A DNA stretch of 44,507 nt, taken from Acidobacteriota bacterium (GTDB taxonomy: Bacteria; Acidobacteriota; UBA6911). A model generated the notes under the pieces. It was not told the origin of the DNA, did no database searches, and saw only the letters and a list, made by a program, of their open reading frames with translations. Made by a program: the position numbers and the translations under genes. Where the stretch lies: positions 1 to 44,507 of the forward strand of contig JAAYCX010000080.1 in assembly GCA_012729555.1 (NCBI GenBank), read 5' to 3'. The first letter of the stretch is position 1. Each line of letters opens with the position of its first letter. Below, piece after piece: positions 11,985-32,817 of this stretch.

Positions 11985-11996
11985 GGCTCCCCCCCC

Positions 11997-18217: not shown

Positions 18218-18664
18218 CTAGGCTTTGAGCTTCTCCCGGAGATTCTCGGTGAACTGGTCCCCCACTTCCTTCGCCTTGGCCCGCATGATCCTTTCGCCGA
18301 AGGTGGCCAGGCGCCCGACCAGGGCCACATTGGCCGTGTAGGAAACATCCACGTTGTCGGGGGAGGTCTCCTTGAGGTTCACCTCGATTTCGGTCGAGAA
18401 ATTCCCCAGCTTGGTCACGTCGGCCCCCCTGCCGACCGCCTTGATGTAGTTGGGGGGGCGCACCTCGGTCAGTTTGGTCGTGAATTTCAACTTGACCTTG
18501 AAGGGCCCCACCCTCTGCGCCACGACGCTTTCGTACGTTTCCGCGTCGAGGGCCTCCATCTTCTCCGTGCCGGGAACGCAGTAACCGAGCGTTTTCGGGT
18601 CCAGCAGCGAATCCCATACTTTCTGGATGGGCGCCTGCAACGAGAACTGTCCTTCTATCAGCAT
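18218..18664 (-). CDS. CoxG-like SRPBCC protein of the molybdenum hydroxylase operon
   Basis: A 148-residue protein of the CO-dehydrogenase subunit G / polyketide-cyclase-like (SRPBCC) family: IEGQFSLQAPIQKVWDSLLDP at the N-terminus and GKKIG-free C-terminal helix with FGERIMRAKAKEVGDQFTENL. CoxG proteins accompany Mo hydroxylases and have been linked to membrane attachment or maturation of the enzyme. It is the last gene of the minus-strand hydroxylase series, separated from the small upstream gene by a hairpin at 18694-18722. Confidence 0.9.
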   Translation of the reverse strand: MLIEGQFSLQAPIQKVWDSLLDPKTLGYCVPGTEKMEALDAETYESVVAQRVGPFKVKLKFTTKLTEVRPPNYIKAVGRGADVTKLGNFSTEIEVNLKETSPDNVDVSYTANVALVGRLATFGERIMRAKAKEVGDQFTENLREKLKA

Positions 18665-18693
18665 TCAAGACTCCTTTCTCTCTGAGTGGCAAC

Positions 18694-18722
18694 GGCCCGG
18701 GGGACGCTTCGCCCCCCGGGCC
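18694..18722 (-). terminator. GC-rich hairpin before coxG
   Basis: A 10-bp perfect stem (18694-18703 with 18713-18722) in the 72-bp gap between the small zinc-finger gene and coxG. There is no U-tract. It may reduce read-through into coxG or stabilise the upstream transcript. Confidence 0.4.
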
Positions 18723-18736
18723 TGGATCTCCGGGCC

Positions 18737-18964
18737 CTATATCTCGTCGATGACGGTGGCTTCTTTCTTGAGCACCTCGGCGAGGGCCTCGTATCCCTTG
18801 TTCCCGAATTCGGTGACCTGGGCCTTGATGAGGGCCGCGTAGGACAGCCCCTGGGTCTTCAGCCACTCCTTGTGCTTCTTGTCGGTCTGTCCCAGGTAGT
18901 GCCGGGCCAGGTCCAGGTGCTCGGCACAGATTTTGCGGCACATCGGGCAACGATAGTTTGGCAT
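18737..18964 (-). CDS. Small zinc-finger-like protein
   Basis: A 75-residue protein with an N-terminal CPMCRKIC...H-x4-H arrangement (C6, C9 or C13, H17, H22), followed by a charged helical tail. This resembles a single C2H2-type Zn finger. A strong GGAGGAG site lies before the ATG, 14 bp after the hydroxylase Mo subunit stop. It may be an accessory of the hydroxylase; no function is known. Confidence 0.7.
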   Translation of the reverse strand: MPNYRCPMCRKICAEHLDLARHYLGQTDKKHKEWLKTQGLSYAALIKAQVTEFGNKGYEALAEVLKKEATVIDEI

Positions 18965-18978
18965 AATGAATCTCCTCC

Positions 18979-21279
18979 TTACTCTTTCGCTTGGGAAGCG
19001 GCGTTGTTTTTGGCCTCTTGCGCACGGATCGCCTTGAGCACCTTCTCCGGTTTCAGGACGTTGCTGAAGAATTCCGCCCCGCAGGCCTGGTATACCGCGT
19101 TGGCCAGTGCCGGCGCGGTCGGCGCGATCGTCGCCTCGGCCGCTTCCTTGGCCCCGAACGGGCCGTTCGGTTCGTAGGTGGGGACATCCAGGATTTCGAT
19201 CTCCGGCATGTCGCGGGTCCGCAGGATCTTGTAGTCCACGAATTCGGGGTTGAGCAGCATCCCCTGGTCCATGGGCATCTCCTCGCACAGGCCGTACCCG
19301 AGCCCCATGTGGATCGATCCTTCCACCTGGCCCCGGGCGCCCAGCGGGTTGATGATCTGGCCGGAATCGTGCACCACGAGGACGTCCCTGGCGGTGACGT
19401 GCCCGGTTTCCCGGTCCACCTTCGCCTTGATCGCCATGATCCCCATGCCGTAGGCGGGGGAGATCATCCCCTTGTTGTGGGGGGTGTAGTGGCCGGTGCC
19501 CGTCAGCGGAACGCCGTCGTTCTGCCGGATCGCGTCCTTGACCAGGTCGTAGTAGGAGAGGCCCCGTTCCGGGCGCAGTTCCAGGAAGATTCTCTTGTTC
19601 CTGGCCACGAGGTCGTAGGCGATGTTCTCCCCCAGTTTCAGCCTGGCGATGTCGATCAGCTTCTGTTTCACCTGGGAGGCGGCGTCCTTGATGGCGTTGC
19701 CGTTCATCAGGGTTTCGCGGCTCCCCCAGGCGCCGAGATCGGTGTAGGCGTGGGCCGTATCCCCCATGTGAAGGCGGATATCCTCGATCCCGATCCCCAG
19801 CTCTTCGGCGCAGATCATGGCGGCCACGGTGTTGTGCCCCTGGCCGACATCGGCCGCCTGGCTGTAGAGGTCGACCGTCCCGTCCCAGTTGACCTTGATG
19901 TGGGCCGAGGAGTAAGCGTAGGGCGTGTCGATCCAGTTGAAGATGCCGCCGGACATGTAGGCGAACCCGCAGTACCCGATCCCCTCATCCTTCTCGATGG
20001 CGGGCCACTTCTCCTTGACCCGCACCGCCATCTTCTCGATGCAGGGCTGGATGCCGCAGCTCTCGAAGGTGTATTGCCCGGGAGCCGTGTAGCCGGGGGC
20101 CACCGCGTTGATGCGGCGGATCTCCAGCGGGTCGACCCCGAGGTCCTTGGCCGCCCGGTCGAGCTGGGTTTCCGAGCAGTACTTTCCCGGAACGGCGCCG
20201 AAACCCCGGATCGAGGTGCCCCAGACGATGTTGGTGTAGGTCCGGACCCCGTCGTACCGGTAGTTGGGGATCTTGTAGGGCATGGTGATGAAGGTGCCGG
20301 TCAGGTAGAGGGTCGTGGCCCCCAGCCCGGTATAGGCCCCCCCGTTGGTCATCGCCTTGACTTCGAAGGCGACGATTTCGCCGTTCTTCTTCATGCCCAG
20401 CTTCAGGGCCATGTGCTGGGCGGTGCGGTGCTCGGTGGTGGTGAATTCCTCGTCCCGGTTGAAGACGACCTTCACCGGGCGCCCGGTCTTCATGGAAAGG
20501 ATGGCCGCGTTCACGGCATCGGGCATGGTGGAGTTCTTGCCGCCGTAATGACCGCCGACATGGGGCTTGATGACGCGGATGTCGCCCTCCCGCATCTTCA
20601 GCGCTTCCGCCAGGTTCTGCTGGACGAAGTAGGGGGACCCGGTGGAGGTCCAGATGGTCAGGCGGCCGGTTCCCTTGTCGTAGCTGGCCAGGGAGCTGTG
20701 CACCTCCATCGCGCAGGGGTGGGCCGCCTCGAGCACGAACCTGTCCTCGCGGACATAGTCCGCCTTGGCGAAGGCGTCATCCACGTCGCCCCACTCGATG
20801 TGGCGCGTCGCGTTGATGTTGCTCGGGAAATCCTCGTGCACCATCGGGGCGTCGTCCTTGATCGCCTCGATCGGATCGAAGACGGCGGGCAGAGGTTCGT
20901 AATCGACCTCGATCAGGTCGAGCGCCTTCTCGGCGATCTCCTCCGAGGTCGCGGCTACGGCCGCCACCGGGTCCCCGATGAAGCGCACCTTGTCGGTGGC
21001 CAGCGCCTGCTGGTCGGAAAGCTCGCGGAAGCGTCGCCAGAGTCCCCATTTGCCCCCGGGGGTGTCCTTTCCGGTGATGACGGCTTTCACCCCCTGCAGC
21101 TTTTCCGCTTCGCTCGTGTCGATGCTGAGGATCTTGGCGTGCGGGTAGGGGCTCCGGAGGAGTTTGCCGTATAGCATGTGGGGCAGGGTCATATCGATGG
21201 TGTACTGGGCCTCCCCCGTAACCTTCGCCGGGCCGTCAACGTTTGGTGTCGGTTTGCCTATGATGGAAAATTCTTTCAT
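18979..21279 (-). CDS. Xanthine dehydrogenase-family Mo-binding subunit
   Basis: A 766-residue molybdopterin-cytosine-dinucleotide subunit of a hydroxylase that inserts water-derived oxygen into a C-H bond. It has an N-terminal a/b hammerhead (to about 130), a VGGHYGGKNS Mo-cofactor loop, IRGFGAVPGKYCSE, and the late QVEGSIHMGLGYGLCEEM segment that holds the catalytic Glu region. The CO-dehydrogenase AYRCSFR loop is absent, so CO oxidation is not supported; an aldehyde, purine, or aromatic/heteroaromatic acid substrate is more likely. It overlaps the 2Fe-2S gene by 4 bp; the start is chosen for that overlap and an AAGGGGG site. Confidence 0.92.
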   Translation of the reverse strand: MKEFSIIGKPTPNVDGPAKVTGEAQYTIDMTLPHMLYGKLLRSPYPHAKILSIDTSEAEKLQGVKAVITGKDTPGGKWGLWRRFRELSDQQALATDKVRFIGDPVAAVAATSEEIAEKALDLIEVDYEPLPAVFDPIEAIKDDAPMVHEDFPSNINATRHIEWGDVDDAFAKADYVREDRFVLEAAHPCAMEVHSSLASYDKGTGRLTIWTSTGSPYFVQQNLAEALKMREGDIRVIKPHVGGHYGGKNSTMPDAVNAAILSMKTGRPVKVVFNRDEEFTTTEHRTAQHMALKLGMKKNGEIVAFEVKAMTNGGAYTGLGATTLYLTGTFITMPYKIPNYRYDGVRTYTNIVWGTSIRGFGAVPGKYCSETQLDRAAKDLGVDPLEIRRINAVAPGYTAPGQYTFESCGIQPCIEKMAVRVKEKWPAIEKDEGIGYCGFAYMSGGIFNWIDTPYAYSSAHIKVNWDGTVDLYSQAADVGQGHNTVAAMICAEELGIGIEDIRLHMGDTAHAYTDLGAWGSRETLMNGNAIKDAASQVKQKLIDIARLKLGENIAYDLVARNKRIFLELRPERGLSYYDLVKDAIRQNDGVPLTGTGHYTPHNKGMISPAYGMGIMAIKAKVDRETGHVTARDVLVVHDSGQIINPLGARGQVEGSIHMGLGYGLCEEMPMDQGMLLNPEFVDYKILRTRDMPEIEILDVPTYEPNGPFGAKEAAEATIAPTAPALANAVYQACGAEFFSNVLKPEKVLKAIRAQEAKNNAASQAKE

Positions 21280-21806
21280 TTCGCCCCCTTCCCTGACTTT
21301 GCCGTCTGCAGCCACTTCTGCGACTCCAGATCCTTCCGTGCCTTGAGCCTCTTGGCCGCGTCGCGCACGGCCTCGTTGATCATGTTGTACCCGGTGCAGC
21401 GGCAGAGGTGTCCGTCCAGTTGCGCCTGGATCTCCTCTCTCGTCGGATCGGCATTCTCGTCGAGCAGCGCCTTGGTGGCCATGATCTGGCCGGAGGTGCA
21501 GAACCCGCACTGGAAGGCCCAGTTGTCGATGAAGGCCTGCTGGATGGGATGCAGGTTTTTCCCCTGCGCCAGTCCTTCGACGGTCGTAACCTCCCTGCCG
21601 TTGACCTGCAGGGCCAGGATGGAACAGGATTTGACCGCCATCCCGTCGACGACGACGGTGCAGGCCGCGCAGGAACTGCTGTCGCAGGCCTGATGGGTTC
21701 CCGTGAGGCCCAAGTGCTCCCTCAGGACCTGGACGAGAAGAGTCTTCGGTTCAATAAAGAGCTCATGCGGCTCTCCATTAACGACGATGTTCAACTGCTG
21801 TTTCAT
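21276..21806 (-). CDS. 2Fe-2S subunit of molybdenum hydroxylase
   Basis: A 176-residue electron-transfer subunit with two 2Fe-2S clusters. The plant-ferredoxin type has CDSSSCAAC plus a later Cys (VKSC). The second set is CGFCTSGQ and CRCTGY. It carries electrons from the Mo site to FAD. It ends in a Lys-rich tail, KSGKGAK. ATG 21806 follows TGGGAGAAC and lies 24 bp after the FAD subunit. Confidence 0.95.
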   Translation of the reverse strand: MKQQLNIVVNGEPHELFIEPKTLLVQVLREHLGLTGTHQACDSSSCAACTVVVDGMAVKSCSILALQVNGREVTTVEGLAQGKNLHPIQQAFIDNWAFQCGFCTSGQIMATKALLDENADPTREEIQAQLDGHLCRCTGYNMINEAVRDAAKRLKARKDLESQKWLQTAKSGKGAK

Positions 21807-21830
21807 AGCGTTCTCCCATGTGTCAAAGGA

Positions 21831-22718
21831 TCAGGCCCTCCGGGCTCTCTCCAGGGCTTCTTTCCCCACTCGTTTCACCAAAGTCCCCGCCAGATCTTTC
21901 TTGTATTCCGCCGACGCTTCGATCCCGGAGATAGGGCTGGTTTCTTCGCTCGCGACCGCGGCCGCCTCGGCCAGCACCTCGTCGGTGATCTTCTTACCTT
22001 TCAATGTTTCTTCGGCTTTTTTGGCCCGGATGGGCGTGGTTCCCACCCCGCCGAGGGCGATTCTGGCATTGACACATTGCTCTTTGCTGCCGTCGAGGGT
22101 GATGAGGACCGCGGCGGAAGCCAGGGCGTAATCCCCGTGGATCTGGGAGTATTTCATGAAATGGACGCCGCTGTTGGGCGGCAGGGGCGGGACCCGGATT
22201 TCGGTCGCCATCTCGCCGGGCTGGACCGTGGTCTCGAAGAAGTCCACGGCGAACTCCTCCGCGGGCACCTTTCTCTCCTCCCCCTTGCTGGCGACGGTGA
22301 TTTTCGCATCCAGCACGATGAGGGGGGGGGCCGGGTCCACCGCCGGGTCGGCGTTGCAGAGGTCGCCCATCAGGGTGCCCCAGTTCCGGGTTTCGACGGA
22401 GGCGACATTCTCCTCCATTTCGCACAGCACCCCGTACTTTTCGCGCACGATGGGCGATTTCTCGACCGCCCGGTGGGTGGCCAGCGCCCCGATCTTCAGT
22501 CCCTCCTGTTCGTCGAACCGGATGTAATCGAGATCCGAGACCCCCTTGATATCGAGGATGTATTCGGGCGCGATCAACCGGTGCTTCATCGCCGTGGCCA
22601 GGGACTGGCCGCCCGCGATGATCCTGTAGTCATCGTCCTTGTGTTCGCACAGCAGGTCGAGCGCTTCCTCGGCCGTTTTTGCTGCCAGATAGTTGAAATC
22701 AGTGGTTATGGTCTTCAT
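21831..22718 (-). CDS. FAD-binding medium subunit of molybdenum hydroxylase
   Basis: A 295-residue CO-dehydrogenase/4-hydroxybenzoyl-CoA reductase-like flavoprotein. The FAD-loop motifs are AGGQSLATAMK (about 36-46) and TLMGDLCNADPAVD; the latter reads MGDLC where most members have GGNLC, a modest divergence. It is the first gene of the hydroxylase operon: FAD, Fe-S, Mo, Zn-finger, CoxG. Confidence 0.93.
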   Translation of the reverse strand: MKTITTDFNYLAAKTAEEALDLLCEHKDDDYRIIAGGQSLATAMKHRLIAPEYILDIKGVSDLDYIRFDEQEGLKIGALATHRAVEKSPIVREKYGVLCEMEENVASVETRNWGTLMGDLCNADPAVDPAPPLIVLDAKITVASKGEERKVPAEEFAVDFFETTVQPGEMATEIRVPPLPPNSGVHFMKYSQIHGDYALASAAVLITLDGSKEQCVNARIALGGVGTTPIRAKKAEETLKGKKITDEVLAEAAAVASEETSPISGIEASAEYKKDLAGTLVKRVGKEALERARRA

Positions 22719-22956
22719 TTCCGCTTGGACCCCCTTGATTGTTCAGTTTGTTCCCCCCCCGGGGGGGCTGAGGAAACCGCCCCCGACGGAAAGGGGAAAC
22801 GCGCCGCCTTTATGAACAGAAAACCGGCTTGCGGCCCCGCTTGTGGCACTGACACCCGATTGGTGCACCTTTCGTGGCTCTGTCCCGGGCTGATCGACAA
22901 AAAACCCCCTCCCCGGGAGTGGAGCCGTTTCGCTGCTGGATTCCCTTAAGCTGATG
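22719..22956. other. Upstream region of the Mo-hydroxylase operon
   Basis: Together with the terminator and short spacer to 23096 this makes a 378-bp gene-free stretch. It must hold the hydroxylase promoter on the minus strand. I see a C8G7 tract near 22755-22770 but no confident promoter or operator. Confidence 0.4.
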
Positions 22957-22988
22957 AAAAAAATGCCCTTGTTCTCAGTTCGGGCATT
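22957..22988 (-). terminator. Rho-independent terminator
   Basis: On the minus strand, AATGCCC and GGGCATT pair around a 13-nt loop and run into a U-tract (A57-A63 on the plus strand). It lies about 110 bp after the stop of the 77-residue gene and insulates the hydroxylase operon from it. Confidence 0.7.
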
Positions 22989-23096
22989 GCCGGATGCAAA
23001 ACTGCGTCAAGCCCCGGGTTCTCCCCGAAGGGGCGGATTTCCTGGCTGGCTGTGCGGATCATGAACAGGAGAGCCCTTGAAACCCGACACTTGCGG

Positions 23097-23330
23097 CTAG
23101 GAGTCTAACACCCAATACCCGGTCTCGCACTGATCGCACTTGACGATGCGGGCGGCGGCCGGAAATCCCATGCTCTTCAGCGGACCGGTGCCCTTCTGGT
23201 CGTCCCCCCGGTGGTGATCCTGAAAGCACAGGTTGAAATGCCTCCCCCGATAGAGGGCGCAGTTGATGCACGCCTTGCCCGACAGGGGGCATACCAGAGG
23301 AGCGTCCTTTTTAATACCTTTCCTTGCCAT
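23097..23330 (-). CDS. Small Cys-rich hypothetical protein
   Basis: A 77-residue protein with CPLSGKACINCALYRGRHFNLC and a C-terminal CDQC, arranged as two metal-binding (Zn or Fe-S) knuckles. The CINCALYRGRHF block recurs in small proteins of anaerobes as I recall; no function is known. A GAGG site lies 9 nt before the ATG. It is monocistronic, with the terminator at 22957-22988. Confidence 0.65.
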   Translation of the reverse strand: MARKGIKKDAPLVCPLSGKACINCALYRGRHFNLCFQDHHRGDDQKGTGPLKSMGFPAAARIVKCDQCETGYWVLDS

Positions 23331-23816
23331 CCTAAAACCTCAATAAGAGTTGGTTTCATGTTAAGAAAATGCCTTCTCGGCTGTCAACGTAATTATTTCC
23401 CGGGGCGTTTCCGTGCGGTTACGGGTTTTCGCTTGACAAGGCGGTTTCACCTGATGGAAGGTAGACCGCAGTGGACGGGTCCAGTGTCCACCTGCTTTGA
23501 CCAACGGTTGAAGGTCTGCGGCGATGGCGGCATGTTGTTGCAAAGATTAGGTTTGTGGTGTTTCTACCTGTCGACCGCCTGGCATCGTGCGCACGGTTTT
23601 AACGGGATTTTCGGGTATAGAACGGCAGGGAGGGGGTCCCTTTTCCCGCCGGTTTCAACGCCACGTTATCAGACACGTCGTACCGCTCGATTCTGTTGAC
23701 TATTTTGTTGTTTATCCTGGGGATGCGCGGCGAGGAGAGCCGAGCCGCGCCTGAGGATATGCCGGTCTGAGGTCACGGAAGCAGACTCGGGGCGCCTTTT
23801 AGGGAAGGAGTTGACA
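23331..23816. other. 486-bp gene-free region before the beta-oxidation operon
   Basis: Less GC-rich than its surroundings, without a convincing coding frame. It must contain the plus-strand promoter of the HAD/ECH gene and the minus-strand promoter of the Cys-rich gene. Small inverted repeats are visible (GTGGAC/GTCCAC near 23470-23490; CCGCAG/CTGCGG at about 23466 and 23517), which could be operator or leader structures. No promoter could be assigned with confidence. Confidence 0.4.
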
Positions 23817-25784
23817 ATGAGAGTAGGAGTGATCGGTTCGGGCTCCATCGGGCCCGACCTGGCTTACGGGTTCCTCTCTTCCCTGGCTGCGGGGGAGGGG
23901 GGGGCGGTGTTCCTCCTGGACATCAACCGGGAAGCCCTGGACGCGGGAGTCCGGCGCATCGAAGGGTATGTCTCGAAGGCCCTGGGGCGGGGCAAGATGA
24001 GCCCGGGGGCGGCAAAAGCGATCCGCGCCATGCTGACCCCCACCATGGAGATCGGGGACCTGGCGACCTGCGACTATGTCCTCGAGGCCGCCACCGAAAA
24101 CCTCGAGACGAAAAAGGCCATTCTGGCCAACCTCGAGAAGATCGTGGGGCCCGACTGCCTGATCGGCTTCGCCACTTCGGGGATCCCGAGGGCGTGGATC
24201 GCGGCGGGGGCGCTCCGCCCGGAGCGCTGTTTCGTGAACCACCCCTTTTTCCCGGCCTGGCGCACGACGCCGATCGAGGTCGTGCCCTCCGGGGACGCAG
24301 CCCTGAGCGAGCGGATGGTATCGGTGCTCAAGTCCCTGGGGAAGGTGCCGATCCTGACGGCCGATGTCGAGGCTTTCGCCGCGGACGACATCTTCTGTAA
24401 CTACATCAGCGAAGCGGTGCGCATCGTCGAGGACGGGATCGCCACCCCCGCCCAGGTCGACCGGATCGTCAACGACGCCGTCGGCGGCGGCGGCCCGTTC
24501 AATGTCATGGACCTGACCCGCGGCAACCTCCTGGTGGCGCACTGCCAGGAGCTCATGCGCGATTCCAGAACCGGCACGCCCTGGTTTGAGCCTCCGGCCC
24601 TGCTCATCCGGCAGGGGAACCAGCCGTGGCACGACCCCAAGGCTCCGGGTGACGCCCGCTTTACGGAATCCCAGCAGAAGGAGGTCCTCGACCGCATGCT
24701 GGCGGTCCTGCTGGGGAGATCCTACGCCGTGGCCGAGAACGGGGTGTGTGAACCGACCGAGCTCAACTGGCTCATCCGCATGTCGCTCGGGTTCGCGGAG
24801 GGGATGCTGGACCTCGGGAGCCGGCTGGGGGCGGACCGGGTCGCCGAACTCTGCCTCGGCTTCAAGCGGAAATACCCCGATTTCCCGGTCCCCGCATGCG
24901 TCGCGGGGAAGGCGCTGATCCCCTACCGGCGCGACGTGAAGGTGGAGCGCGACGGGGATATCGGGGTGGTGCGGGTCTTCCGGCCCGAGGCCCGGAACGC
25001 GCTCACCATGAGGACGGTCGAGGAGATCGGGAGCGCTATCGATGAGCTCGGGGCGGACGCGGCCGTCGCGGGAATCATCTTCACGAGCTACGACGGCTCC
25101 CTTGCCGGGGCCGACGTCAACCAGTTCACCTCGCTCGAGACGCGCGAGGCGGCCGAGGGGATCTGCCTGAAGGCGTATCCCGTGCTCAAGAAGATCTCCG
25201 GGATGTCCAAGCCGGTGGTCGCCGCACTCGACGGCCCGGTGATGGGGGGCGGGGCGGAATTCGCCCTCGCCTGCCACGGCAGGGTCGTCGGCCCGAACGT
25301 GCGCCTGGCCCAGCCCGAGGTCAACCTCGGGGTCGTGCCGGGCTACGGCGCCACGCAGCGCCTCCCGCGCCTCATCGGCGTGGAGCGCGCGCTCGAACTG
25401 ATGCGCACGGGGCGCGTGGCGGACGCCGCGGAGGCGTGTGCCATCGGCTGGGCGCACGGGGAACCGGTCGCGGACCCCTGCCGGGCGGCCAAGGACCTCA
25501 TCCGCGGGCATGTCGCCGGAAAGGTGAAGCTCCGGCCGGTCGACCCGGCCCCCGTTTCCGTCCCCGAAGCGATCCCGGAGGTGGACCTCGGTCACCGGTC
25601 GCTCCGGATCGACGCCATCCTGGTGGACGCGGTGACCCGGGGACTCGCACTCCCCCTTGACGAGGGGCTCCGGGTTGAGGCCGCGGCGTTTGCCGATGCC
25701 CGGGCGACGGTCGATGCGGATATCGGCATCAAGAACTTCACAACGAACGGCCCGCGTGTCCCGGCCGCCTTCATACACGAGTAG
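23817..25784 (+). CDS. 3-hydroxyacyl-CoA dehydrogenase / enoyl-CoA hydratase fusion
   Basis: A 655-residue bifunctional beta-oxidation enzyme with the dehydrogenase first and the hydratase second, the reverse of FadB/FadJ. The N-terminal Rossmann motif GSGSIG, an NHPFFP segment with the catalytic His, and a C-terminal crotonase domain (from about 370) with GPVMGGGAEFALA and QPEVNLGVVPGYG keep both catalytic Glu positions. The order resembles archaeal and some anaerobic bacterial enzymes. ATG 23817 is chosen over a TTG 6 bp earlier because GGAAGGAG is 6 nt before it. It heads the operon with the thiolase. Confidence 0.92.
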   Translation: MRVGVIGSGSIGPDLAYGFLSSLAAGEGGAVFLLDINREALDAGVRRIEGYVSKALGRGKMSPGAAKAIRAMLTPTMEIGDLATCDYVLEAATENLETKKAILANLEKIVGPDCLIGFATSGIPRAWIAAGALRPERCFVNHPFFPAWRTTPIEVVPSGDAALSERMVSVLKSLGKVPILTADVEAFAADDIFCNYISEAVRIVEDGIATPAQVDRIVNDAVGGGGPFNVMDLTRGNLLVAHCQELMRDSRTGTPWFEPPALLIRQGNQPWHDPKAPGDARFTESQQKEVLDRMLAVLLGRSYAVAENGVCEPTELNWLIRMSLGFAEGMLDLGSRLGADRVAELCLGFKRKYPDFPVPACVAGKALIPYRRDVKVERDGDIGVVRVFRPEARNALTMRTVEEIGSAIDELGADAAVAGIIFTSYDGSLAGADVNQFTSLETREAAEGICLKAYPVLKKISGMSKPVVAALDGPVMGGGAEFALACHGRVVGPNVRLAQPEVNLGVVPGYGATQRLPRLIGVERALELMRTGRVADAAEACAIGWAHGEPVADPCRAAKDLIRGHVAGKVKLRPVDPAPVSVPEAIPEVDLGHRSLRIDAILVDAVTRGLALPLDEGLRVEAAAFADARATVDADIGIKNFTTNGPRVPAAFIHE

Positions 25785-25797
25785 GGGGGAAGCGACT

Positions 25798-27078
25798 ATG
25801 GCGAAGGAAAAATCGATCGTCGTCCTCGACGGCGGCCGCAGGCTGCCGAGAGCGGATATTCTGCACAACAACAAGGCCCCGGGGCTGTTCACGCGTTTCA
25901 CGACGACCCAGCTCGGCGGGATGGCGGTCAAGGCGGCGCTCGCCCACACCCCCGTCGACAAGGGCCTCATCGGGCACGTGGTCATGGGGATGGCGGCGCA
26001 CAGCCACCGCGACTCCATCTACGGGGCGCAGGGCGCCCGCTGGCGCGGGGGGCTGGGCGAGGACGTGCCCGCCCTGACCGTGGCCCGCATCTGCGGAAGC
26101 GGGGCCGAGGCCATCAGCGTGGCTTCGGAGATGATCCTCGCCGGGCTCCGGCACGACGAGGCGCGCCCCTTCTACGTGGTGGGGGGGAGCGAGAGCATGC
26201 AGTACCCCTTCGTGCTCTACAACGCCCGGGGCAAAAAGGTGGGTAACGCGGTCCAGAAGTACGGTCCCGTGGACACCCGGGCCCTCGCGGCGGGCACCCA
26301 TCTGCAGGACGCGCTGCTGATGTGCCTCTACGACCCGAGCGCCAAGCTGGCCATGGCCAACACCGGGGAGGAGCTGGGGCGGCGGTACGGGATCACGCGC
26401 GAGGAATGCGACCTCTTCGGCTACCGCTCCCACGTGAACGCCAAAAAAGCGCGCGACGCCGGGCACTTCGACGAGGAGATCGAGCCGGTGACCGTGAACC
26501 AGGGGGGGGGGCGTCCGGCCTTCACGGTGAAGTACGACACCCACATCCTGGAGAACCCGTCGCTCGAGACGATGGCGAAGCTGCCTCCCGCGTTTGAATC
26601 GGGCGGGGTCATCACCGCCGGGAACGCCAGCGCGGTGGTCGACAGCGCCGCGGCCATGGTGCTCGGGCTGGAATCGGACGCCGAAAGCCACGGGCTCCGA
26701 CCCCTCTGCCGCATCATCGGGTACGGGGTGGCGGGGGTGGACCCCCGGGTCATGGGGATCGGCCCCGTTCCGGCCACCCGCAAGGCGCTCGAGCACGCCG
26801 GAATCGGGGGGGACCGCATCGACATCGTCGAGATCAACGAGGCGTTCGCGCCGCAGTCGCTGGCGTGCGTCCGCGAGTTCGAGAAGATGGGGATCGATCC
26901 CGAAAAGGTCAACCCCATGGGGAACGCCATCGCGCTGGGGCATCCGCTGGGCGCGACCGGGGCGATCCTGACCCTGACCTGTGCCTACGCCCTGAGGCGC
27001 CGGAAGCTGCGCTACGGGCTGGTGACCATGTGCATCGGCGGCGGCCAGGGGATCGCCCTGGTCCTGGAGTCCATCTGA
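25798..27078 (+). CDS. Thiolase (acetyl-CoA acyltransferase)
   Basis: A 426-residue thiolase. The nucleophile is Cys99 in ARICGSGAEAIS. The EINEAFAPQ motif, GNAIALGHPLGATGA with the active His, and MCIGGGQG with the second Cys are all intact. It would cleave 3-ketoacyl-CoA to acetyl-CoA and a shortened acyl-CoA. It lies 13 bp after the HAD/ECH fusion with an AGGGGGGAAG ribosome site, so the two likely act together in beta-oxidation. Confidence 0.95.
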   Translation: MAKEKSIVVLDGGRRLPRADILHNNKAPGLFTRFTTTQLGGMAVKAALAHTPVDKGLIGHVVMGMAAHSHRDSIYGAQGARWRGGLGEDVPALTVARICGSGAEAISVASEMILAGLRHDEARPFYVVGGSESMQYPFVLYNARGKKVGNAVQKYGPVDTRALAAGTHLQDALLMCLYDPSAKLAMANTGEELGRRYGITREECDLFGYRSHVNAKKARDAGHFDEEIEPVTVNQGGGRPAFTVKYDTHILENPSLETMAKLPPAFESGGVITAGNASAVVDSAAAMVLGLESDAESHGLRPLCRIIGYGVAGVDPRVMGIGPVPATRKALEHAGIGGDRIDIVEINEAFAPQSLACVREFEKMGIDPEKVNPMGNAIALGHPLGATGAILTLTCAYALRRRKLRYGLVTMCIGGGQGIALVLESI

Positions 27079-27121
27079 CCCATCCGGGAGTGACCCCGCG
27101 CGAAAACCAAAAGGAGGAATG

Positions 27122-28570
27122 ATGAAGCATAAGGATGAGTTGGCGAAGATAGTGGGCCGGGAGAATGTGAGCGATGCGGAGGACGTCCTGCTCCGGTACT
27201 CCCGGGACCTCAGCCTGGTACCCCCGGGGAGGCCGGAACTGGTGGCCTGGCCGACAAGCTCGGCAGAGGTGAGCGAAATCCTGAAATGGTCCAACGGGAA
27301 GAACATCCCCGTGGTCCCGCTCTCTTCCGGGGTACACCCGAACGGCGGCGCCATCCCCAAACAGGGGGGAGTCGTCATCGATCTCTCCAGGATGAACCGG
27401 ATCCTGGAAATCGACCGGGACCTCAAGCAGGTGCGCATCGAGGCCGGAGTGACCTGGGGGCAGCTGACGGCGGAGCTGGCGAAGCAGGAGATGAGGGTCA
27501 TCATGCCCCTGGCGCCGTACGCGGACCGGTCGGTGCTCTCCGATTTCCTGGACCGGGAAGTGCCGACGAACACCGTCTACGACTACGGAGAACCGATGCA
27601 GGCGTTCGAGGTGGTCTGGCCTACGGGCGAGATCTTCAGGCTGGGTTCGGCCAGCGTCAACGGATACCCGGATTCCGGTTCGCACGGCGGCAACCCTTCC
27701 GGCCCCGGGATCGATTTTTACCGCTTCGTCCAGGGGGCCCAGGGCACCATGGGGGTCGTGACCTGGACCAATCTGAAGATCGTCCACGGCACCAAAAAGG
27801 ACAAGGTGTTCTTCGTCCCGGTGGACGACCTCGGGCAGGCGCAGGAATTTCTCTATCGCCTGCTGCCGCGCCGGGTCGGCCAGGAGGTGGTGCTCCTGAA
27901 CCAGACCGACCTGGCGGCCCTCGTCGCGGAGAATTTCCCCGACGATTTCGAGAGGCTGCGGGCGACCCTGCCCCCCTGGACCCTGGTCATCGTCATCAGC
28001 GGGCTGGTGCGCCGTCCGGAGGAAAAAATCGCCTATGAAGTCAATCTCCTCAGGGAACTCGTCAAGAACGAATTCCGGAGCCTGACGATCGACGAAGCGC
28101 TCCCGGGATTCCCCGGATTGGGAAACCGGATGCTTCCCCTCCTCCGCAACCCCTGGCCCGCCGACGGCCCCTACTGGAAGAACCGCTGGCAGGGGGCGTC
28201 CCAGAGCCTGTTTTTCATCGCCAGGCCGGAAGATACGCCGAGGTTCGTGGAGATCGTGGAATCGATCGCCCCCCAGTACGGGTATCCCGTGGCCGATATC
28301 GGGAGCTACATCCAGCCCATAGAACACAACCGCGCCTGCCAGGTGGAATTCACCTTCTTCTACGACAGGAAGGACGAGGCGTGCATCGCCGCGCTCTACC
28401 TGGATGCGGCACGGGCCCTCATCAGCGAGGGCGCCCTCTTTACCCGGCCATACGGCGATCTGGCGCCGATGGTCTACGAACGAGCGGCCAGTTACGTCAT
28501 GGGGCTCAAGCGGGTGAAGAAGATTTTCGATCCCAATAACATCATGAACCCGGGCAACCTGTGTTTTTAG
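27122..28570 (+). CDS. FAD-linked oxidase/dehydrogenase, GlcD-like (first)
   Basis: A 482-residue VAO/PCMH-fold flavoprotein: the FAD-binding region includes PSSAEVSEILK and PVVPLSSGVHPNGG with GGVVIDLSRMN, and the second half holds the substrate domain with a C-terminal FDPNNIMNPGN. Relatives oxidise D-2-hydroxy acids such as glycolate or lactate. Two adjacent ATGs exist; 27122 is preferred because AAGGAGG ends too close to the first at 27119. It is followed 10 bp later by a CCG iron-sulfur protein, as in glycolate or lactate dehydrogenase sets. Confidence 0.85.
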   Translation: MKHKDELAKIVGRENVSDAEDVLLRYSRDLSLVPPGRPELVAWPTSSAEVSEILKWSNGKNIPVVPLSSGVHPNGGAIPKQGGVVIDLSRMNRILEIDRDLKQVRIEAGVTWGQLTAELAKQEMRVIMPLAPYADRSVLSDFLDREVPTNTVYDYGEPMQAFEVVWPTGEIFRLGSASVNGYPDSGSHGGNPSGPGIDFYRFVQGAQGTMGVVTWTNLKIVHGTKKDKVFFVPVDDLGQAQEFLYRLLPRRVGQEVVLLNQTDLAALVAENFPDDFERLRATLPPWTLVIVISGLVRRPEEKIAYEVNLLRELVKNEFRSLTIDEALPGFPGLGNRMLPLLRNPWPADGPYWKNRWQGASQSLFFIARPEDTPRFVEIVESIAPQYGYPVADIGSYIQPIEHNRACQVEFTFFYDRKDEACIAALYLDAARALISEGALFTRPYGDLAPMVYERAASYVMGLKRVKKIFDPNNIMNPGNLCF

Positions 28571-28580
28571 GGAGGGGACG

Positions 28581-29873
28581 ATGCCGACGAAAGTGAATCT
28601 GGAAACAACCGATCTGAATAATTACAAATACGACATGAGCCGGTGCATCAAGTGCAAGGGGTGCTACTGGGTGGAGCACACCTACATGCCGGGCGTGAAG
28701 TTCAGCACGCGCTGCCCCAGCAACGTGTGGAACGATTTCGATTCCTACGGCGCGTTCGGCAAGATGAGAATCGGGCACGCCATGGTCGAGAAAAAGCTCG
28801 ACTGGACCCCCAAGCTGCTGGAAATCGTCTACGCCGACCCGCTGTGCGGCGCCTGCGACGTCGCCTGCAAGAGAAACCTGGATCTGGAAATCGGGCTCTC
28901 GCTCGAGGCGATGCGCGTGAAGGCGGTCCAGGACGGCGCCGGGCCGATGCCGGCGCACAAAAAGATCGCCCGGAACATCGCCGCTTCCCACAACTGCTTC
29001 GGCTCGGAGCACGGGGACCGGAAGGGGTGGCTGACCCCCGATATCCAGGTGGCGGACAAGGCCGATCTCCTTTACTTCGTCGGGTGCACCGCGTCCTACA
29101 CGAACCCGGAAATCGCCCGCGCCACGGCGAAGATCCTCAACGCCACCGGCACCCCGTTCATGCTGATGGAGGACGAGTGGTGCTGCGGCAACACCCTGCA
29201 GTCGGTCGGCATGCTCGACGAGGCCCGCGAACTGGCCCGTCGCAACATCGACAGGGTCAAGGCAACGGGCGCCCGGCGGGTGCTCCTCTCCTGCGCGGAA
29301 GGGTACCGGATGTGGAAGGTCGAGTACCCGAAGCTCCTCAATATCGCCACCTCCGATCTCCCGTTCGAGGTGGTGCACCTGACGGAGCTGGCGGATGAAC
29401 TGCTCCGGCAGGGGGCGCTCAAGATGACCCGGCCGGTCGGCGCGCGCGTGACCTATCACGATTCCTGCAGCATCAGCCGCCTGGCGGACCCGTGGACCCC
29501 CTGGAGCGGCGAACGCGGCTGGATGGGGACGGTGTCCCCGCCGCTCAAGCGCCGGCGCGGGACGCAGGGGCTCTACGCGCAGCCGAGAAACGTCATCGCC
29601 AACATCCCGGGGGTCGATTTCGTGGAGATGATCCGGATCCGGGAGAACGCCTTCTGCTGCGGCGCCGGCCGGGGAACGAAAGAGGCGTTCCCCACACTCG
29701 CCTCCTCCTCGGCGAAACACCGGCTGGAAGAGGTGAAGGAAATTGGAGCCGAGGTCCTGGTTTCTGCATGCCCCTGGTGCAAAAACAACTTCTCACAGGC
29801 CGCCCGCGAAGGCGGCGACGCGGTGAGGGTGATGGACTTTTCCGAACTCATTGCTGCATCCCTGGACGCATAG
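28581..29873 (+). CDS. Heterodisulfide reductase/GlcF-like CCG iron-sulfur protein
   Basis: A 430-residue electron-transfer protein. An N-terminal ferredoxin-like part has C22-x2-C25-x2-C28 with C45-Pro, and a second incomplete-looking C89-x2-C92-x3-C96. Two CCG domains follow, DEWCCGNTLQSVG and ENAFCCGAGRG, the ligands of the non-cubane clusters known from HdrB and GlcF. It lies between two FAD oxidases and probably links them to a quinone or other carrier. ATG 28581 is 10 bp after the preceding stop. Confidence 0.9.
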   Translation: MPTKVNLETTDLNNYKYDMSRCIKCKGCYWVEHTYMPGVKFSTRCPSNVWNDFDSYGAFGKMRIGHAMVEKKLDWTPKLLEIVYADPLCGACDVACKRNLDLEIGLSLEAMRVKAVQDGAGPMPAHKKIARNIAASHNCFGSEHGDRKGWLTPDIQVADKADLLYFVGCTASYTNPEIARATAKILNATGTPFMLMEDEWCCGNTLQSVGMLDEARELARRNIDRVKATGARRVLLSCAEGYRMWKVEYPKLLNIATSDLPFEVVHLTELADELLRQGALKMTRPVGARVTYHDSCSISRLADPWTPWSGERGWMGTVSPPLKRRRGTQGLYAQPRNVIANIPGVDFVEMIRIRENAFCCGAGRGTKEAFPTLASSSAKHRLEEVKEIGAEVLVSACPWCKNNFSQAAREGGDAVRVMDFSELIAASLDA

Positions 29874-29882
29874 GAGGAAATC

Positions 29883-31553
29883 ATGGCCATTTTAAAGGAA
29901 GCGTACAAAGCGTTGGAGGCCGTCGTCGGGGCCAGGTTCCTGTCCGACGACCCCGTCATCTGCCAGGGGTACCAGTCGGGTCCCGCGGGGTATGAAAACG
30001 GGACGGGATACGAGCGCGTGATGACCAAGATCCCGGGCGCCGTCATCCTGCCGAAGAACACGGAAGAGGTCCAGAAGATCGTCAAGATCTGCATCCGCTA
30101 CACGATTCCCTACGTCCCGTACAGCACGGGGTTCTACGGCCCCCGGTCCCACTGCCACGTGGAAAACGAGCTGCTCGTCGACCTGAAGCGGCTGAACGAC
30201 TTCGAATTCGACGAAAAGCACTGGTACGCCGTGGTCGGCAGCGGCGTGGTCTATTCGCAGTTCCAGGAGGAATGCCTCCGCCGCGGCGGTTACGTCGTCA
30301 TCGGCGGCGGCGGGGCCCAGGCGTCCGTCATCGCCAACCTGATCGGGGACGGCTGGTCCCCCCTCAGCCACCGGATCGGGCTCCCGCACCGCCGCATCCT
30401 CGGTACGGAAATGGTCCTCCCCGACGGCGAAATCCTCAAGATGGGGTCCCTGGCGGTCGGCGACGACTGGTTCTGGGGGGACGGCATCGGGCCCGACCTG
30501 CGCGGAATCCTGCGCGGGTATACCGGACTGCGCGGATGCCTCGGGATCGTGACCAAGATGGCGGTCAAGGTCCTGCCGTTCCAGCCCGAAAAGCTCCAGC
30601 CTACCGGGATCTCGCCCAACACGGCGCTGGCGCTCCCCGAAAAGCGGGTCAAGTGGATCAACTACATCATGCCCAGCAAGGAAGCGCAGGTGAAGGCGAT
30701 GTACGAGATCTGCAAGGCCGAAATCGGCGGCGCGGTCACCAAGGTCCCCCTCTTCTGGCGCGCGATCGCCAAGGCGGAGTGCAAGGAGGAGTTCTGGGAC
30801 CTGTGGCTGAAGGAGACGCCGGAAACGGTGGCCAACTTCCACATCGTGCGCGTGCTGCTGATCGGCTTCACCAGCGAAGAGCAGCTGACCTACGACGAAA
30901 ACGTCCTGAACGACATCATGATGGAACTGGGCGGCCAGCCGCGGCGTACCAAGCCGAGCGACGAGTCCTGGATCAAGAACGCCGATTCGGCCGGGATGTG
31001 GTTGATGTGCGGCTCCTACGTCTCGGTCGACTACGTGATCGAGACCCTCAAGCAGGCGACCGAGCACGGGCCGGTGTACGCGGAGCTGAAGAAGAAGTAC
31101 ACGCCGCCGCTGATGCCCGATCACGGCGACCCGGGGTGGTTCCAGACCTTCGAACTGGGGTACCAGGGTTATTCCGAATTCCTGATCTACTGGGACCAGG
31201 ACGAGGACACGACCGGAGTCGACCACTTCTACCTGGAAACCTCCAAGATGAACATCGACCACCGGTTCTATACCGCGCTGATCGGGCCGCATCAGCCCCT
31301 GTACCTCACCGGGCCGATGTACGGGCCGAACTACCACGAGTGGATGCTCAAGATCAAAAACGAATTCGACCCGACCTGGACCTGTCACCCGCCGGTGCCG
31401 TTCGCGCACGACGAGTTCGTCGAGCGGGCGCCCTGGATGCACGAACTCAAGACCTGGGAATCGCCCAAAAAGTCGATCTACCCCAAGTGGCTGGAGAAAC
31501 AGCTGGCGGCCGAGGCCAAGGAGTTCCGGAAAACCCTGGAGGAAGGGAAGTAG
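29883..31553 (+). CDS. FAD-linked oxidase, VAO family (second)
   Basis: A 556-residue flavoprotein of the same VAO fold, unrelated in detail to the first: IPYVPYSTGFYGPRSHCHVENELLVDLKRLND forms the FAD loop, and the C-terminal part (YTALIGPHQPLYLTGPMYGPN) resembles 4-cresol dehydrogenase or vanillyl-alcohol-oxidase-like proteins. No covalent-FAD residue can be assigned from sequence. It is the last gene of the FAD/CCG/FAD trio. TAGGAGGAA precedes it. Substrate unknown: a hydroxy acid or alkylphenol oxidase is possible. Confidence 0.82.
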   Translation: MAILKEAYKALEAVVGARFLSDDPVICQGYQSGPAGYENGTGYERVMTKIPGAVILPKNTEEVQKIVKICIRYTIPYVPYSTGFYGPRSHCHVENELLVDLKRLNDFEFDEKHWYAVVGSGVVYSQFQEECLRRGGYVVIGGGGAQASVIANLIGDGWSPLSHRIGLPHRRILGTEMVLPDGEILKMGSLAVGDDWFWGDGIGPDLRGILRGYTGLRGCLGIVTKMAVKVLPFQPEKLQPTGISPNTALALPEKRVKWINYIMPSKEAQVKAMYEICKAEIGGAVTKVPLFWRAIAKAECKEEFWDLWLKETPETVANFHIVRVLLIGFTSEEQLTYDENVLNDIMMELGGQPRRTKPSDESWIKNADSAGMWLMCGSYVSVDYVIETLKQATEHGPVYAELKKKYTPPLMPDHGDPGWFQTFELGYQGYSEFLIYWDQDEDTTGVDHFYLETSKMNIDHRFYTALIGPHQPLYLTGPMYGPNYHEWMLKIKNEFDPTWTCHPPVPFAHDEFVERAPWMHELKTWESPKKSIYPKWLEKQLAAEAKEFRKTLEEGK

Positions 31554-31562
31554 GCGGCGGCC

Positions 31563-31605
31563 AAAAAAAAGGAAGGGCCCGTGCCGTTTCGTGCGGCACG
31601 GGCCC
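31563..31605 (-). terminator. Rho-independent terminator of the 37-residue gene
   Basis: A 12-bp perfect stem (31575-31586 with 31594-31605) around loop TTTCGTG, followed on the minus strand by U8 (A8 at 31563-31570). Strong minus-strand terminator. It also sits 10 bp downstream of the plus-strand flavoprotein gene, whose own end it may serve as a hairpin. Confidence 0.85.
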
Positions 31606-31628
31606 CGGCAAACCATGATGAGGGTGTA

Positions 31629-31742
31629 TTAATGAAGAATCGAAGTGTCGGGCTTCGTTTTCTTTCCGCGCACCGCGGAACGAACCCCGGCGAGCACTAA
31701 CGCACCGGCAAACAGTCCACCTAATACCGCAACCATAGCCAT
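31629..31742 (-). CDS. 37-residue single-span membrane peptide
   Basis: A short gene with everything in place: an AAGGAGAGG ribosome site before the ATG, a hydrophobic span (MVAVLGGLFAGALVLAGV), a basic stretch RSAVRGKKTK, and a TAA stop. A promoter (31773-31800) lies upstream and a strong terminator (31563-31605) downstream. No family is recognised. It is convergent with the FAD oxidase gene and divergent from the Crp/Fnr gene. Confidence 0.7.
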   Translation of the reverse strand: MAMVAVLGGLFAGALVLAGVRSAVRGKKTKPDTSILH

Positions 31743-31772
31743 AAGTCACCTCTCCTTGATAATGCGGCGCGA

Positions 31773-31800
31773 TTTATAGCACCCTCCGCGCCGATTTCAA
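31773..31800 (-). promoter_or_regulatory. Sigma-70 promoter of the 37-residue gene
   Basis: On the minus strand TTGAAA (31795-31800) and TATAAA (31773-31778) are separated by 16 bp, placing the transcript start about 25 bp before the ATG at 31742. Confidence 0.6.
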
Positions 31801-31935
31801 AGCAAAAACTTCGGAACCGGCCCGGACGGGAAAAGTTCCCGGCAACGGGGCGAAACCTCCCGCGCCCGTCCAGGGTCCCGGCCCCGGCAACCTTGTAAAT
31901 ATTGAATATAAAAGATTTCAGTCTTTGGCGCGGGC

Positions 31936-31951
31936 TGGCACGCTCCTTGCA
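31936..31951 (+). promoter_or_regulatory. Sigma-54 promoter of the Crp/Fnr gene
   Basis: TGGCAC-N5-TTGCA, an exact match to the -24/-12 consensus (GG and GC correctly spaced), 107 bp before the ATG of the regulator. RpoN control needs an activator that is not encoded in the window. The rest of 31743-32058 holds no gene. Confidence 0.8.
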
Positions 31952-32766: not shown

Positions 32767-32817
32767 GGGTTTCCGGTCGACGGGCGTATAATGGGGCCTG
32801 GAGAACGGGAGGCCCGG

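What the first reader, a model, noticed from the sequence alone, without database searches (positions are those of the whole stretch)
18218..31553. Catabolic island combining a Mo hydroxylase, beta-oxidation and a FAD/CCG/FAD electron trio
A Mo hydroxylase (not CO-type: no AYRCSFR), HAD/ECH fusion, thiolase and a flavin/Fe-S/flavin set lie in two divergent operons about 1.1 kb apart. The combination suggests oxidation of an unusual acid, with electrons delivered by the CCG protein. The substrate cannot be named.
Basis: inference. Interest (0 to 1): 0.55.

Follow-up and report, generated by a model that had tools for sequence, protein, structure and literature searches.

The report
Paired flavin and molybdenum catabolic cassette
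Two neighbouring gene groups in an uncultured Acidobacteria genome, one for a molybdenum enzyme and one for a flavin/iron-sulfur enzyme complex, belong to a gene cassette that recurs in unrelated oxygen-free-living bacteria and has the same make-up as the complex recently proposed to attack benzene without oxygen, so it probably helps to break down some hard-to-oxidise, probably aromatic, compound.

Summary
In detail: CoxG and a three-subunit Mo hydroxylase on the minus strand; HAD/ECH fusion, thiolase, FAD1, CCG and FAD2 on the plus strand. A missed small Cys-rich gene (23100-23330, -) lies between them. Inside the genus (Acidobacteriota) the Mo enzyme is found in 10 of 10 genomes and the trio in 7 of 10; one genome lacks exactly 23399-32018. 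Outside the genus the link is strong: in two Dehalococcoidales and two deltaproteobacterial MAGs the trio, CoxG and Mo subunits lie head to tail on one strand (small gene found in three of the four), and Mo genes lie within 10 kb of 22 of 48 close trio relatives against 0 of 53 distant ones. The FAD/CCG/FAD make-up equals the complex proposed in 2026 to activate benzene anaerobically, and two genus relatives also carry a CoA-transferase pair as in that cluster. FAD1 has the whole VAO/PCMH fold but keeps one of nine p-cresol-site residues. The Mo enzyme is nearest 4-hydroxybenzoyl-CoA reductase yet misses its cut-offs and Fe-S insert. Best reading: one anaerobic pathway oxidising an aryl side chain, then beta-oxidation. 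Substrate unproven; no BamA (benzoyl-CoA ring opening) was found in the window genome.

The parts
18218..18664 (-). CoxG homologue (148 aa), last gene of the Mo operon
   Evidence: PF06240 1.1e-20; downstream of MoL in 6 of 6 genus loci that reach it: L041, L042, L046, L048, L049, L052
18979..21279 (-). MoL, molybdopterin (large) subunit of a xanthine-oxidase-family enzyme
   Evidence: PF02738/PF20256; best NCBIfam TIGR03194 680.5 bits, cut-off 994.55; best PDB chain 1rm6_A; no AYRCSFR
21276..21806 (-). MoS, 2x[2Fe-2S] small subunit
   Evidence: PF01799/PF00111; eight Cys
21831..22718 (-). MoM, FAD (medium) subunit
   Evidence: PF00941/PF03450; only four scattered Cys, 295 aa; TIGR03195 97.4 bits, cut-off 404.55
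23100..23330 (-). small Cys-rich protein, pattern CP-x-S-x3-C-x2-C-x2-YRG[RK]H-x3-CF, no Pfam family above its cut-off
   Evidence: conserved in the genus and near trio and/or Mo genes in L070, L074, L077, L084, L198, L200; Pfam
23817..25784 (+). 3-hydroxyacyl-CoA dehydrogenase / enoyl-CoA hydratase fusion
   Evidence: PF02737, PF00725, PF00378
25798..27078 (+). thiolase (acetyl-CoA C-acyltransferase)
   Evidence: PF00108/PF02803; TIGR01930 345.5 bits, above cut-off 240.55; start by comparison with L043
27119..28570 (+). FAD1, VAO/PCMH-fold flavoprotein
   Evidence: PF01565; full-length profile match to PCMH; model pLDDT 89, Z 36 to vanillyl alcohol oxidase
28581..29873 (+). CCG iron-sulfur protein (HdrB/GlcF-like)
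   Evidence: PF02754 x2; Cys inventory; alignment A1
29883..31553 (+). FAD2, VAO-fold flavoprotein, most conserved member of the trio
   Evidence: PF01565; 68-91% identity to 24 close relatives in A2 and 60% to a 25th, L202; model pLDDT 75.5, Z 27.8 to mLDHD
32059..32766 (+). Crp/Fnr-type regulator downstream, possible regulator
   Evidence: PF00027/PF13545; kept in G085, which lacks the five-gene operon
23399..32018 (.). presence/absence segment that holds the five-gene operon
   Evidence: absent from G085 (L041) while both flanks align at about 85%

Best explanation
The region is a split copy of one anaerobic catabolic cassette. Module 1 is a heterotrimeric flavin/Fe-S dehydrogenase (FAD1-CCG-FAD2): a VAO/PCMH-fold flavin takes a hydride from a side-chain carbon of the substrate, and electrons pass through the [4Fe-4S] and CCG clusters of the middle protein to a carrier. 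Module 2 is a CoxG-associated Mo hydroxylase that adds (or, run backwards, removes) a water-derived hydroxyl group, by analogy with CO dehydrogenase handing electrons to menaquinone through CoxG. Module 3 (HAD/ECH, thiolase; in two genus relatives also two class III CoA-transferases) makes the CoA ester and shortens the side chain to acetyl-CoA plus a shorter, probably aryl, CoA ester. Most likely substrate class: an aromatic compound with a short side chain (phenylpropanoid or methoxyphenol type). Shown: genes, fold, linkage, presence/absence. Inferred: complex formation, direction of the Mo reaction, substrate class, order of steps.
For: One-strand order trio-CoxG-MoM-MoS-MoL in L074, L077, L081, L084, with the small gene found in L074, L077 and L084. 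Mo genes within 10 kb of 22 of 48 clade-A trios against 0 of 53 clade-B trios, Fisher 2.9e-9; with at least 7 kb held on both sides 14 of 21 against 0 of 22; loci of the scan only, 7 of 22 against 0 of 53, p 8.6e-5; nearest Mo gene on the trio's strand in 17 of the 22. CoxD/CoxE next to the trio in L065 and L072. FAD1 matches p-cresol methylhydroxylase end to end; models best match VAO, eugenol oxidase, PCMH and D-lactate dehydrogenase. Aromatic hints: AMP-ligase within 10 kb of 12 of 48 clade-A loci (clade B 5 of 53), ACAD 7 of 48 (3 of 53), RACo 3 of 48 (1 of 53); corrinoid methyltransferase genes beside trios in L070 and L123; the CoA-transferase pair of the genus is 73 and 71% identical to one beside a clade-B trio and corrinoid methyltransferase genes in an Anaerolineae MAG, L120; a URO-D/B12/pterin/RACo cluster in the window's own genome; relatives in Syntrophorhabdus, Pelotomaculum, Desulfonema magnum; same trio make-up in benzene-degrading cultures.
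Against: No substrate has been shown for any member. The window genome (98.9% complete) has no BamA match at 1e-10, so it could at most degrade the side chain or use another ring route. Only one of nine PCMH active-site residues is kept in FAD1, so a PCMH-type phenol site is not supported. The CoA-transferase pair is missing from the window. In the genus the Mo operon occurs without the trio. 26 of 48 clade-A loci show no Mo genes in the DNA held. AOR genes are no commoner near clade A (3 of 48) than near clade B (6 of 53), and the reference proteins for these neighbour counts came mostly from clade-A loci, so part of the context is weak evidence.
Confidence: 0.5

Rival explanations
1. The trio is mainly an electron sink for the Mo hydroxylase: the Mo enzyme oxidises the substrate and hands electrons through its FAD subunit to the FAD/CCG/FAD complex.
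For: Tight linkage of trio and Mo genes; CCG proteins are usual electron-transfer subunits (recalled, and so described for Hdr-like proteins in PMC13101534).
Against: The Mo operon has its own CoxG, which a 2026 survey describes as the quinone-binding partner of Mo-CO dehydrogenase (PMC13240472, passages); 26 of 48 clade-A loci show no Mo genes in the held DNA; among the 22 that do, MoL is only 38-56% identical to the window's (34% for a second fragment in L064) while FAD2 is 72-81%.
Confidence: 0.15
2. A 2-hydroxy-acid system: the trio is a GlcDEF-like 2-hydroxyacid dehydrogenase and the Mo enzyme an unrelated aldehyde or purine oxidase; substrates are aliphatic.
For: Same subunit plan as GlcDEF; FAD2's best structural matches are D-lactate dehydrogenases (Z 27.8), which tie with VAO for FAD1; the beta and gamma Mo subunits score best with glyceraldehyde dehydrogenase models, below cut-off.
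Against: glcD model 70.5 bits against a cut-off of 567.9; PF02913 only 20.4 bits in FAD1 and not listed for FAD2; FAD1 matches PCMH over its whole length.
Confidence: 0.17
3. The Mo enzyme works reductively, as a phenol dehydroxylase like 4-hydroxybenzoyl-CoA reductase or Ucdh, removing a hydroxyl after the side chain has been shortened.
For: All eight linked MoL proteins that were scanned score best with TIGR03194 (window, seven); Ucdh shows that an enzyme only 32.7% identical to 4-HBCR, with FAD and 2x[2Fe-2S] subunits, can dehydroxylate (PMC12771579, passages).
Against: None of the eight reaches the cut-off; the window's beta subunit is short and lacks the Fe-S insert described for 4-HBCR; CoxG points to quinone reduction, the oxidative direction.
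Confidence: 0.3
4. The cassette activates an unsubstituted hydrocarbon such as benzene.
For: Same FAD/CCG/FAD plus class III CoA-transferase make-up as the Magic cluster.
Against: Toth et al. describe the Magic cluster as found only in benzene-degrading anaerobes and a limited number of contigs, mostly hydrothermal (Musat et al. also list syntenic homologues in other MAGs); clade A is widespread, 25 of 395 genomes sampled from the phylum of D. magnum at 72% FAD2 identity or more; no BamA in the window genome.
Confidence: 0.04

Closest known systems
'Magic' gene cluster of Ca. Anaerobenzenivorax ORM2 (Toth et al. 2026, PMC13101534) and BzS1_12970/80/90 (Musat et al. 2026, PMC13416013)
   Same: FAD / two-repeat Cys-rich Fe-S / FAD gene order; protein sizes similar (window 54.1, 47.7, 63.1 kDa; BzS1 54.5, 46.5, 65.8 kDa); class III CoA-transferase pair next to the trio in genus relatives G113 and G242
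   Different: No Mo enzyme in the cluster is mentioned in what I read ('molybd' 0 times in Toth et al.; 'molybdenum' 2 times in Musat et al., one passage shown, on alkyl dehydrogenases); MaoC hydratases and AMP-ligase there, HAD/ECH and thiolase here; sequence identity to those proteins could not be measured
4-hydroxybenzoyl-CoA reductase (HcrABC) and urolithin C dehydroxylase (Ucdh)
   Same: MoL is closest to HcrA among NCBIfam models and solved structures; Ucdh was not compared by sequence
   Different: 680.5 bits against a cut-off of 994.55; no Fe-S insert in the FAD subunit; CoxG present
VAO/PCMH flavoenzymes (vanillyl alcohol oxidase, eugenol oxidase, p-cresol methylhydroxylase)
   Same: Whole fold of FAD1 (Z 32-36, rmsd 2.7-3.0) and FAD2 (Z 23-25, rmsd 3.6-4.0)
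   Different: Fe-S CCG partner and two FAD subunits in place of O2 or cytochrome c; p-cresol site not kept in FAD1
Glycolate dehydrogenase GlcDEF
   Same: Two FAD subunits and one CCG subunit
   Different: Far below the glcD cut-off (70.5 and 60.8 against 567.9 bits); C-terminal FAD-oxidase domain not recognised above cut-off

Membership tests
Magic/BzS1-type flavoprotein complex | FAD / Cys-rich Fe-S / FAD genes in this order | tested here: met
Magic/BzS1-type flavoprotein complex | adjacent class III CoA-transferase pair | tested here: not met
   absent from the window, G172 and G247; pair present in G113 and G242 (67 and 70% identical), one member in G248; the G188 contig starts inside FAD1
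Magic/BzS1-type flavoprotein complex | membership of the benzene clade by sequence (WAC08368-70, BzS1 proteins) | not testable with these tools
   those records were not reached in any collection; one search sampled 395 genomes of the phylum, unnamed
Magic/BzS1-type flavoprotein complex | genome encodes benzoyl-CoA ring degradation (BamA) | tested here: not met
   TIGR03200: no match in G000 at 1e-10; over cut-off in G113 and G247, partial in G242 and G248; weak matches ring in 10 of 14 controls, none over cut-off
4-hydroxybenzoyl-CoA reductase | alpha, beta and gamma subunits above TIGR03194/3195/3193 cut-offs | tested here: not met
   680.5/994.55, 97.4/404.55, 167.2/257.8 bits
4-hydroxybenzoyl-CoA reductase | extra [4Fe-4S] insert in the FAD subunit | tested here: not met
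   MoM is 295 aa with four scattered Cys at 24, 99, 121, 215; the insert itself is known to me from a reference title and recall
Aerobic CO dehydrogenase (form I) | AYRCSFR active-site motif | tested here: not met
   motif absent; TIGR02416 312.7 against 991.15 bits
VAO/PCMH flavoprotein family | FAD_binding_4 domain and VAO fold over the whole chain | tested here: met
   for FAD2 the C-terminal half by fold only
p-cresol methylhydroxylase | phenol-binding and catalytic residues (Y95, E380, Y384, E427, H436, D440, Y473, R474, R512; list recalled) | tested here: not met
   in FAD1 only R474 (as R443) kept, 1 of 9, in one MAFFT alignment at about 20% identity; FAD2 not tested
p-cresol methylhydroxylase | cytochrome c partner | tested here: not met
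   neighbours are CCG and FAD proteins
GlcDEF glycolate dehydrogenase | glcD family score | tested here: not met
   70.5 (FAD1) and 60.8 (FAD2) against 567.9 bits
GlcDEF glycolate dehydrogenase | two FAD subunits plus one CCG subunit | tested here: met

The most novel reading that the evidence does not exclude
Clade-A trios are the phenol or arene counterpart of the benzene-activating flavoprotein: a flavin/Fe-S complex that joins an aromatic ring or its side chain to a C3-type partner (as proposed for benzene), with the linked CoxG-associated Mo enzyme hydroxylating or dehydroxylating the ring. The HAD/ECH fusion, thiolase and CoA-transferases then carry out the oxidation and thiolysis steps that the authors of the Magic-cluster paper could not find in their cluster. 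This would make a new two-enzyme route of anaerobic aromatic attack, spread across at least four phyla.
Probability: 0.1. Interest if true: 0.9.

Novelty: new variant of a known kind. Interest (0 to 1): 0.6.

Why it matters
The mechanism of oxygen-free benzene activation is an open question, and a leading candidate is a FAD/Fe-S/FAD complex reported from uncultured benzene degraders. This region shows a complex of the same make-up, tied to a Mo enzyme, in many organisms including a named sulfate reducer with a finished genome (Desulfonema magnum), where substrate induction, knock-out or purification could be tried. If the linkage means function, it offers a tractable entry into this enzyme family and predicts an uncharacterised CoxG-associated Mo hydroxylase that is not a CO dehydrogenase.

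Tried and rejected
CO dehydrogenase: rejected, no AYRCSFR and far below cut-off. True 4-hydroxybenzoyl-CoA reductase: rejected as membership, kept as a working analogy. True p-cresol methylhydroxylase: rejected at the residue level for FAD1. A foreign island by composition: GC over the operons ranges 0.585-0.70 per kb, not a clear jump; not pursued. Two operons strictly co-inherited inside the genus: rejected. BamA with trio in the genus: in 4 of 7 trio genomes (two of these partial) and 0 of 3 others; too few to count as evidence.

Direct comparison with the benzene Magic/BzS1 proteins failed: I reached their records in no collection. A sample of 395 genomes from the phylum of D. magnum gave, besides 25 genomes at 72% or more, FAD2 matches of 39-62%; of these, L204-L206 match the published BzS1 masses closely, but their neighbourhoods do not match the published clusters. 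The matches at 32-38% were not inspected. Clade A was set by rule (CCG 57% or FAD2 69% or more, or FAD2 60% or more; L201 and L202 enter by FAD2). These are loci, not genomes: L063/L213, L065/L215 and L076/L217 are pairs from one genome. Loci are related to each other, so the Fisher values overstate independence; many are cut short by contig ends. Literature: the listings (7, 1, 2, 0 and 0 papers) showed no paper on the trio and the Mo enzyme together; I opened only Musat et al., and the library holds open-licence papers only. Kropp et al. 2025 on CoxG is not held and is known here only as cited in PMC13240472; Schnaars et al. 2021 on D. magnum is not held. Passages of PMC11887813 named no such cluster.

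Full report
WHAT IS THERE. The window is contig C80 of a 3.83-Mb, 98.9% complete draft genome. Contigs of genus mates carry public titles 'Acidobacteria bacterium' (L057-L059; contig lengths equal to those of L047, L051 and L043). On the minus strand, in the order of transcription: MoM (FAD subunit), MoS (2x[2Fe-2S]), MoL (Mo subunit), CoxG. On the plus strand: HAD/ECH fusion, thiolase, FAD1, CCG, FAD2, then a Crp-type regulator at 32059. The 1.1-kb gap holds a conserved 77-aa gene (23100-23330, -) with the pattern CP-x-S-x3-C-x2-C-x2-YRG[RK]H-x3-CF, with no Pfam family above its cut-off. In the window it stands first in the Mo direction.

DISTRIBUTION INSIDE THE GENUS. MoL was found in 10 of 10 genomes of the genus and a close CCG orthologue in 7 of 10. 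FAD2 at E 1e-30 was found in 5 of 247 genomes sampled across the phylum, all in this genus. In G085 the window aligns up to 23398 and resumes at 32019 with about 200 bp between, so exactly the five-gene operon is missing while the small gene, Mo operon and Crp stay. In G172 the two halves lie on contigs that overlap in window coordinates 22907-22984, so the window layout is probably kept there. G113 and G242 have two class III CoA-transferases between thiolase and FAD1, 67 and 70% identical to each other's, and G248 has one; G172, G247 and the window have none. The genus thus shows a constant Mo/CoxG core and a gain-or-loss operon beside it or, in G247, on another contig.

DISTRIBUTION OUTSIDE THE GENUS. 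The single genome-contig scan with the CCG alignment (the best 80 of 337 relatives kept) gave 79 loci. Close relatives (clade A, CCG 57-87% identical) lie in deltaproteobacterial MAGs, Dehalococcoidia (Chloroflexota), Bacillota (Pelotomaculum, Desulfosporosinus), Syntrophorhabdus and the named strain Desulfonema magnum 4be13. In L074, L077, L081 and L084 the order is FAD1-CCG-FAD2-(small gene)-CoxG-MoM-MoS-MoL on one strand; the small gene was not found in L081. With at least 7 kb held on each side it is 14 of 21 against 0 of 22. For loci of the scan alone it is 7 of 22 against 0 of 53. In 17 of the 22 the nearest Mo gene is on the trio's strand. The Mo partners are not one orthologous group: MoL is 38-56% identical to the window's (34% for a second fragment in L064) while FAD2 in the same loci is 72-81%. 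A CCG tree (quick method, SH-aLRT only) puts the window inside a starred 27-row set with Desulfobacterota and Bacillota rows; its nearest neighbours outside the genus, at support 88 and 90 (not starred), are Syntrophobacterales and Syntrophaceae MAGs. With its rarity in the phylum this suggests lateral gain, which I did not test further.

THE FLAVIN TRIO. FAD1's profile matches p-cresol methylhydroxylase from end to end (105 bits); its AlphaFold2 model (pLDDT 89) matches vanillyl alcohol oxidase (Z 36.2, rmsd 2.7, 459 aligned), D-lactate dehydrogenase (Z 36.0, rmsd 3.2, 440 aligned) and PCMH (Z 34.8, rmsd 2.7, 461 aligned), the first two a tie. FAD2's model is weaker (pLDDT 75.5) and matches D-lactate dehydrogenase (Z 27.8, rmsd 3.5, 430 aligned) and eugenol oxidase (Z about 24). 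Both are thus VAO-superfamily flavoproteins; a shared fold shows no function. Of nine PCMH site residues (list recalled) only R474 is kept in FAD1. The CCG protein has 17 Cys; by my reading of their spacing, one N-terminal Fe-S motif and the second CCG motif look complete and the other two lack a Cys. Toth et al. report that two of four motifs in their Protein #25 miss Cys too, but distant clade-B proteins look alike, so this is not specific.

RELATION TO THE BENZENE COMPLEX. Musat et al. 2026 (PMC13416013; I read the abstract and outline, section 3.5 in full, and passages) describe a FAD/HdrC-like/FAD complex making up about a fifth of the detected proteome of a benzene-degrading sulfate reducer. 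Toth et al. 2026 (PMC13101534; abstract and outline, three sections in full, and passages; [quoted passage not shown] Our operon has the same trio, carries HAD/ECH and thiolase, and in two genus mates the CoA-transferase pair. A distant (clade B) trio in an Anaerolineae MAG (L120) also sits with thiolase, HAD/ECH, corrinoid methyltransferase genes and a CoA-transferase pair that is 73 and 71% identical to that of G113, although its CCG is only about 34% identical. I could not measure identity to the benzene proteins, so kinship with them is by architecture and described families only. The word stem 'molybd' does not occur in Toth et al..

THE MO ENZYME. MoL is nearest 4-hydroxybenzoyl-CoA reductase alpha (1rm6_A best PDB chain; TIGR03194 680.5 bits); seven further linked MoL proteins score 673-756 bits, all below the cut-off of 994.55. 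The window's beta subunit lacks room and Cys for the extra Fe-S cluster, and the beta and gamma subunits score better with glyceraldehyde dehydrogenase models, also below cut-off. Ucdh, an enzyme 32.7% identical to 4-HBCR, dehydroxylates phenols (PMC12771579, passages), so a reductive role stays open. CoxG argues for quinone reduction, by analogy with CO dehydrogenase (PMC13240472, passages).

SUBSTRATE CLASS. For an aromatic substrate: taxa known for aromatic degradation among the carriers (taxa, their habits partly recalled), AMP-ligases and acyl-CoA dehydrogenases near the trio (12 and 7 of 48, against 5 and 3 of 53 for clade B), corrinoid methyltransferase genes beside trios in L070 and L123, part of such a set in L074, and a URO-D/B12-binding/pterin/RACo cluster in the window's own genome (that this family includes O-demethylases is recalled). 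RACo occurs in 10 of 10 genus genomes and 1 of 14 controls, so it does not track the trio. Against: no BamA match in the window genome, although G113 and G247 have full and G242 and G248 partial matches; no phenol site in FAD1. I therefore put an aromatic substrate at about 0.6 and complete ring degradation by the window organism as unlikely.

VERDICT. The thing is best filed as a new variant of a known kind: a VAO-fold FAD/CCG/FAD complex coupled by gene order to a CoxG-type Mo hydroxylase, with its function inferred and not shown.

Noticed in passing
window 23100-23330 (-): Conserved small Cys-rich protein with a CP..S...C..C..YRG[RK]H...CF pattern, found near trio or Mo genes in Acidobacteriota, Dehalococcoidia and deltaproteobacterial MAGs; no Pfam family above its cut-off.
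   Followed up: partly
L233 (G000:C44:28000-44000): The window's own genome has a corrinoid methyltransferase set: two URO-D proteins, a B12-binding protein, a pterin-binding methyltransferase and RACo.
   Followed up: partly
window 32745-38359 and about 39701-42480: Two more blocks (histidine kinase / response regulator / hybrid kinase; ammonium transporter and P-II) are absent from G085 while their flanks align.
   Followed up: no
   Followed up: partly
L120: Anaerolineae MAG with CoA-transferase pair (71-73% identical to that of the window's genus), thiolase, HAD/ECH, CoA-ligase-like protein, clade-B trio and corrinoid methyltransferase genes in one run.
   Followed up: partly
window 9259-16182: A C39 peptidase, a CAAX protease-like protein and an ABC ATPase lie together with unnamed proteins; looks like an export or peptide system.
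   Followed up: no
window 139-4428: DtxR-type repressor followed by FeoB: an ordinary ferrous iron uptake locus.
   Followed up: no
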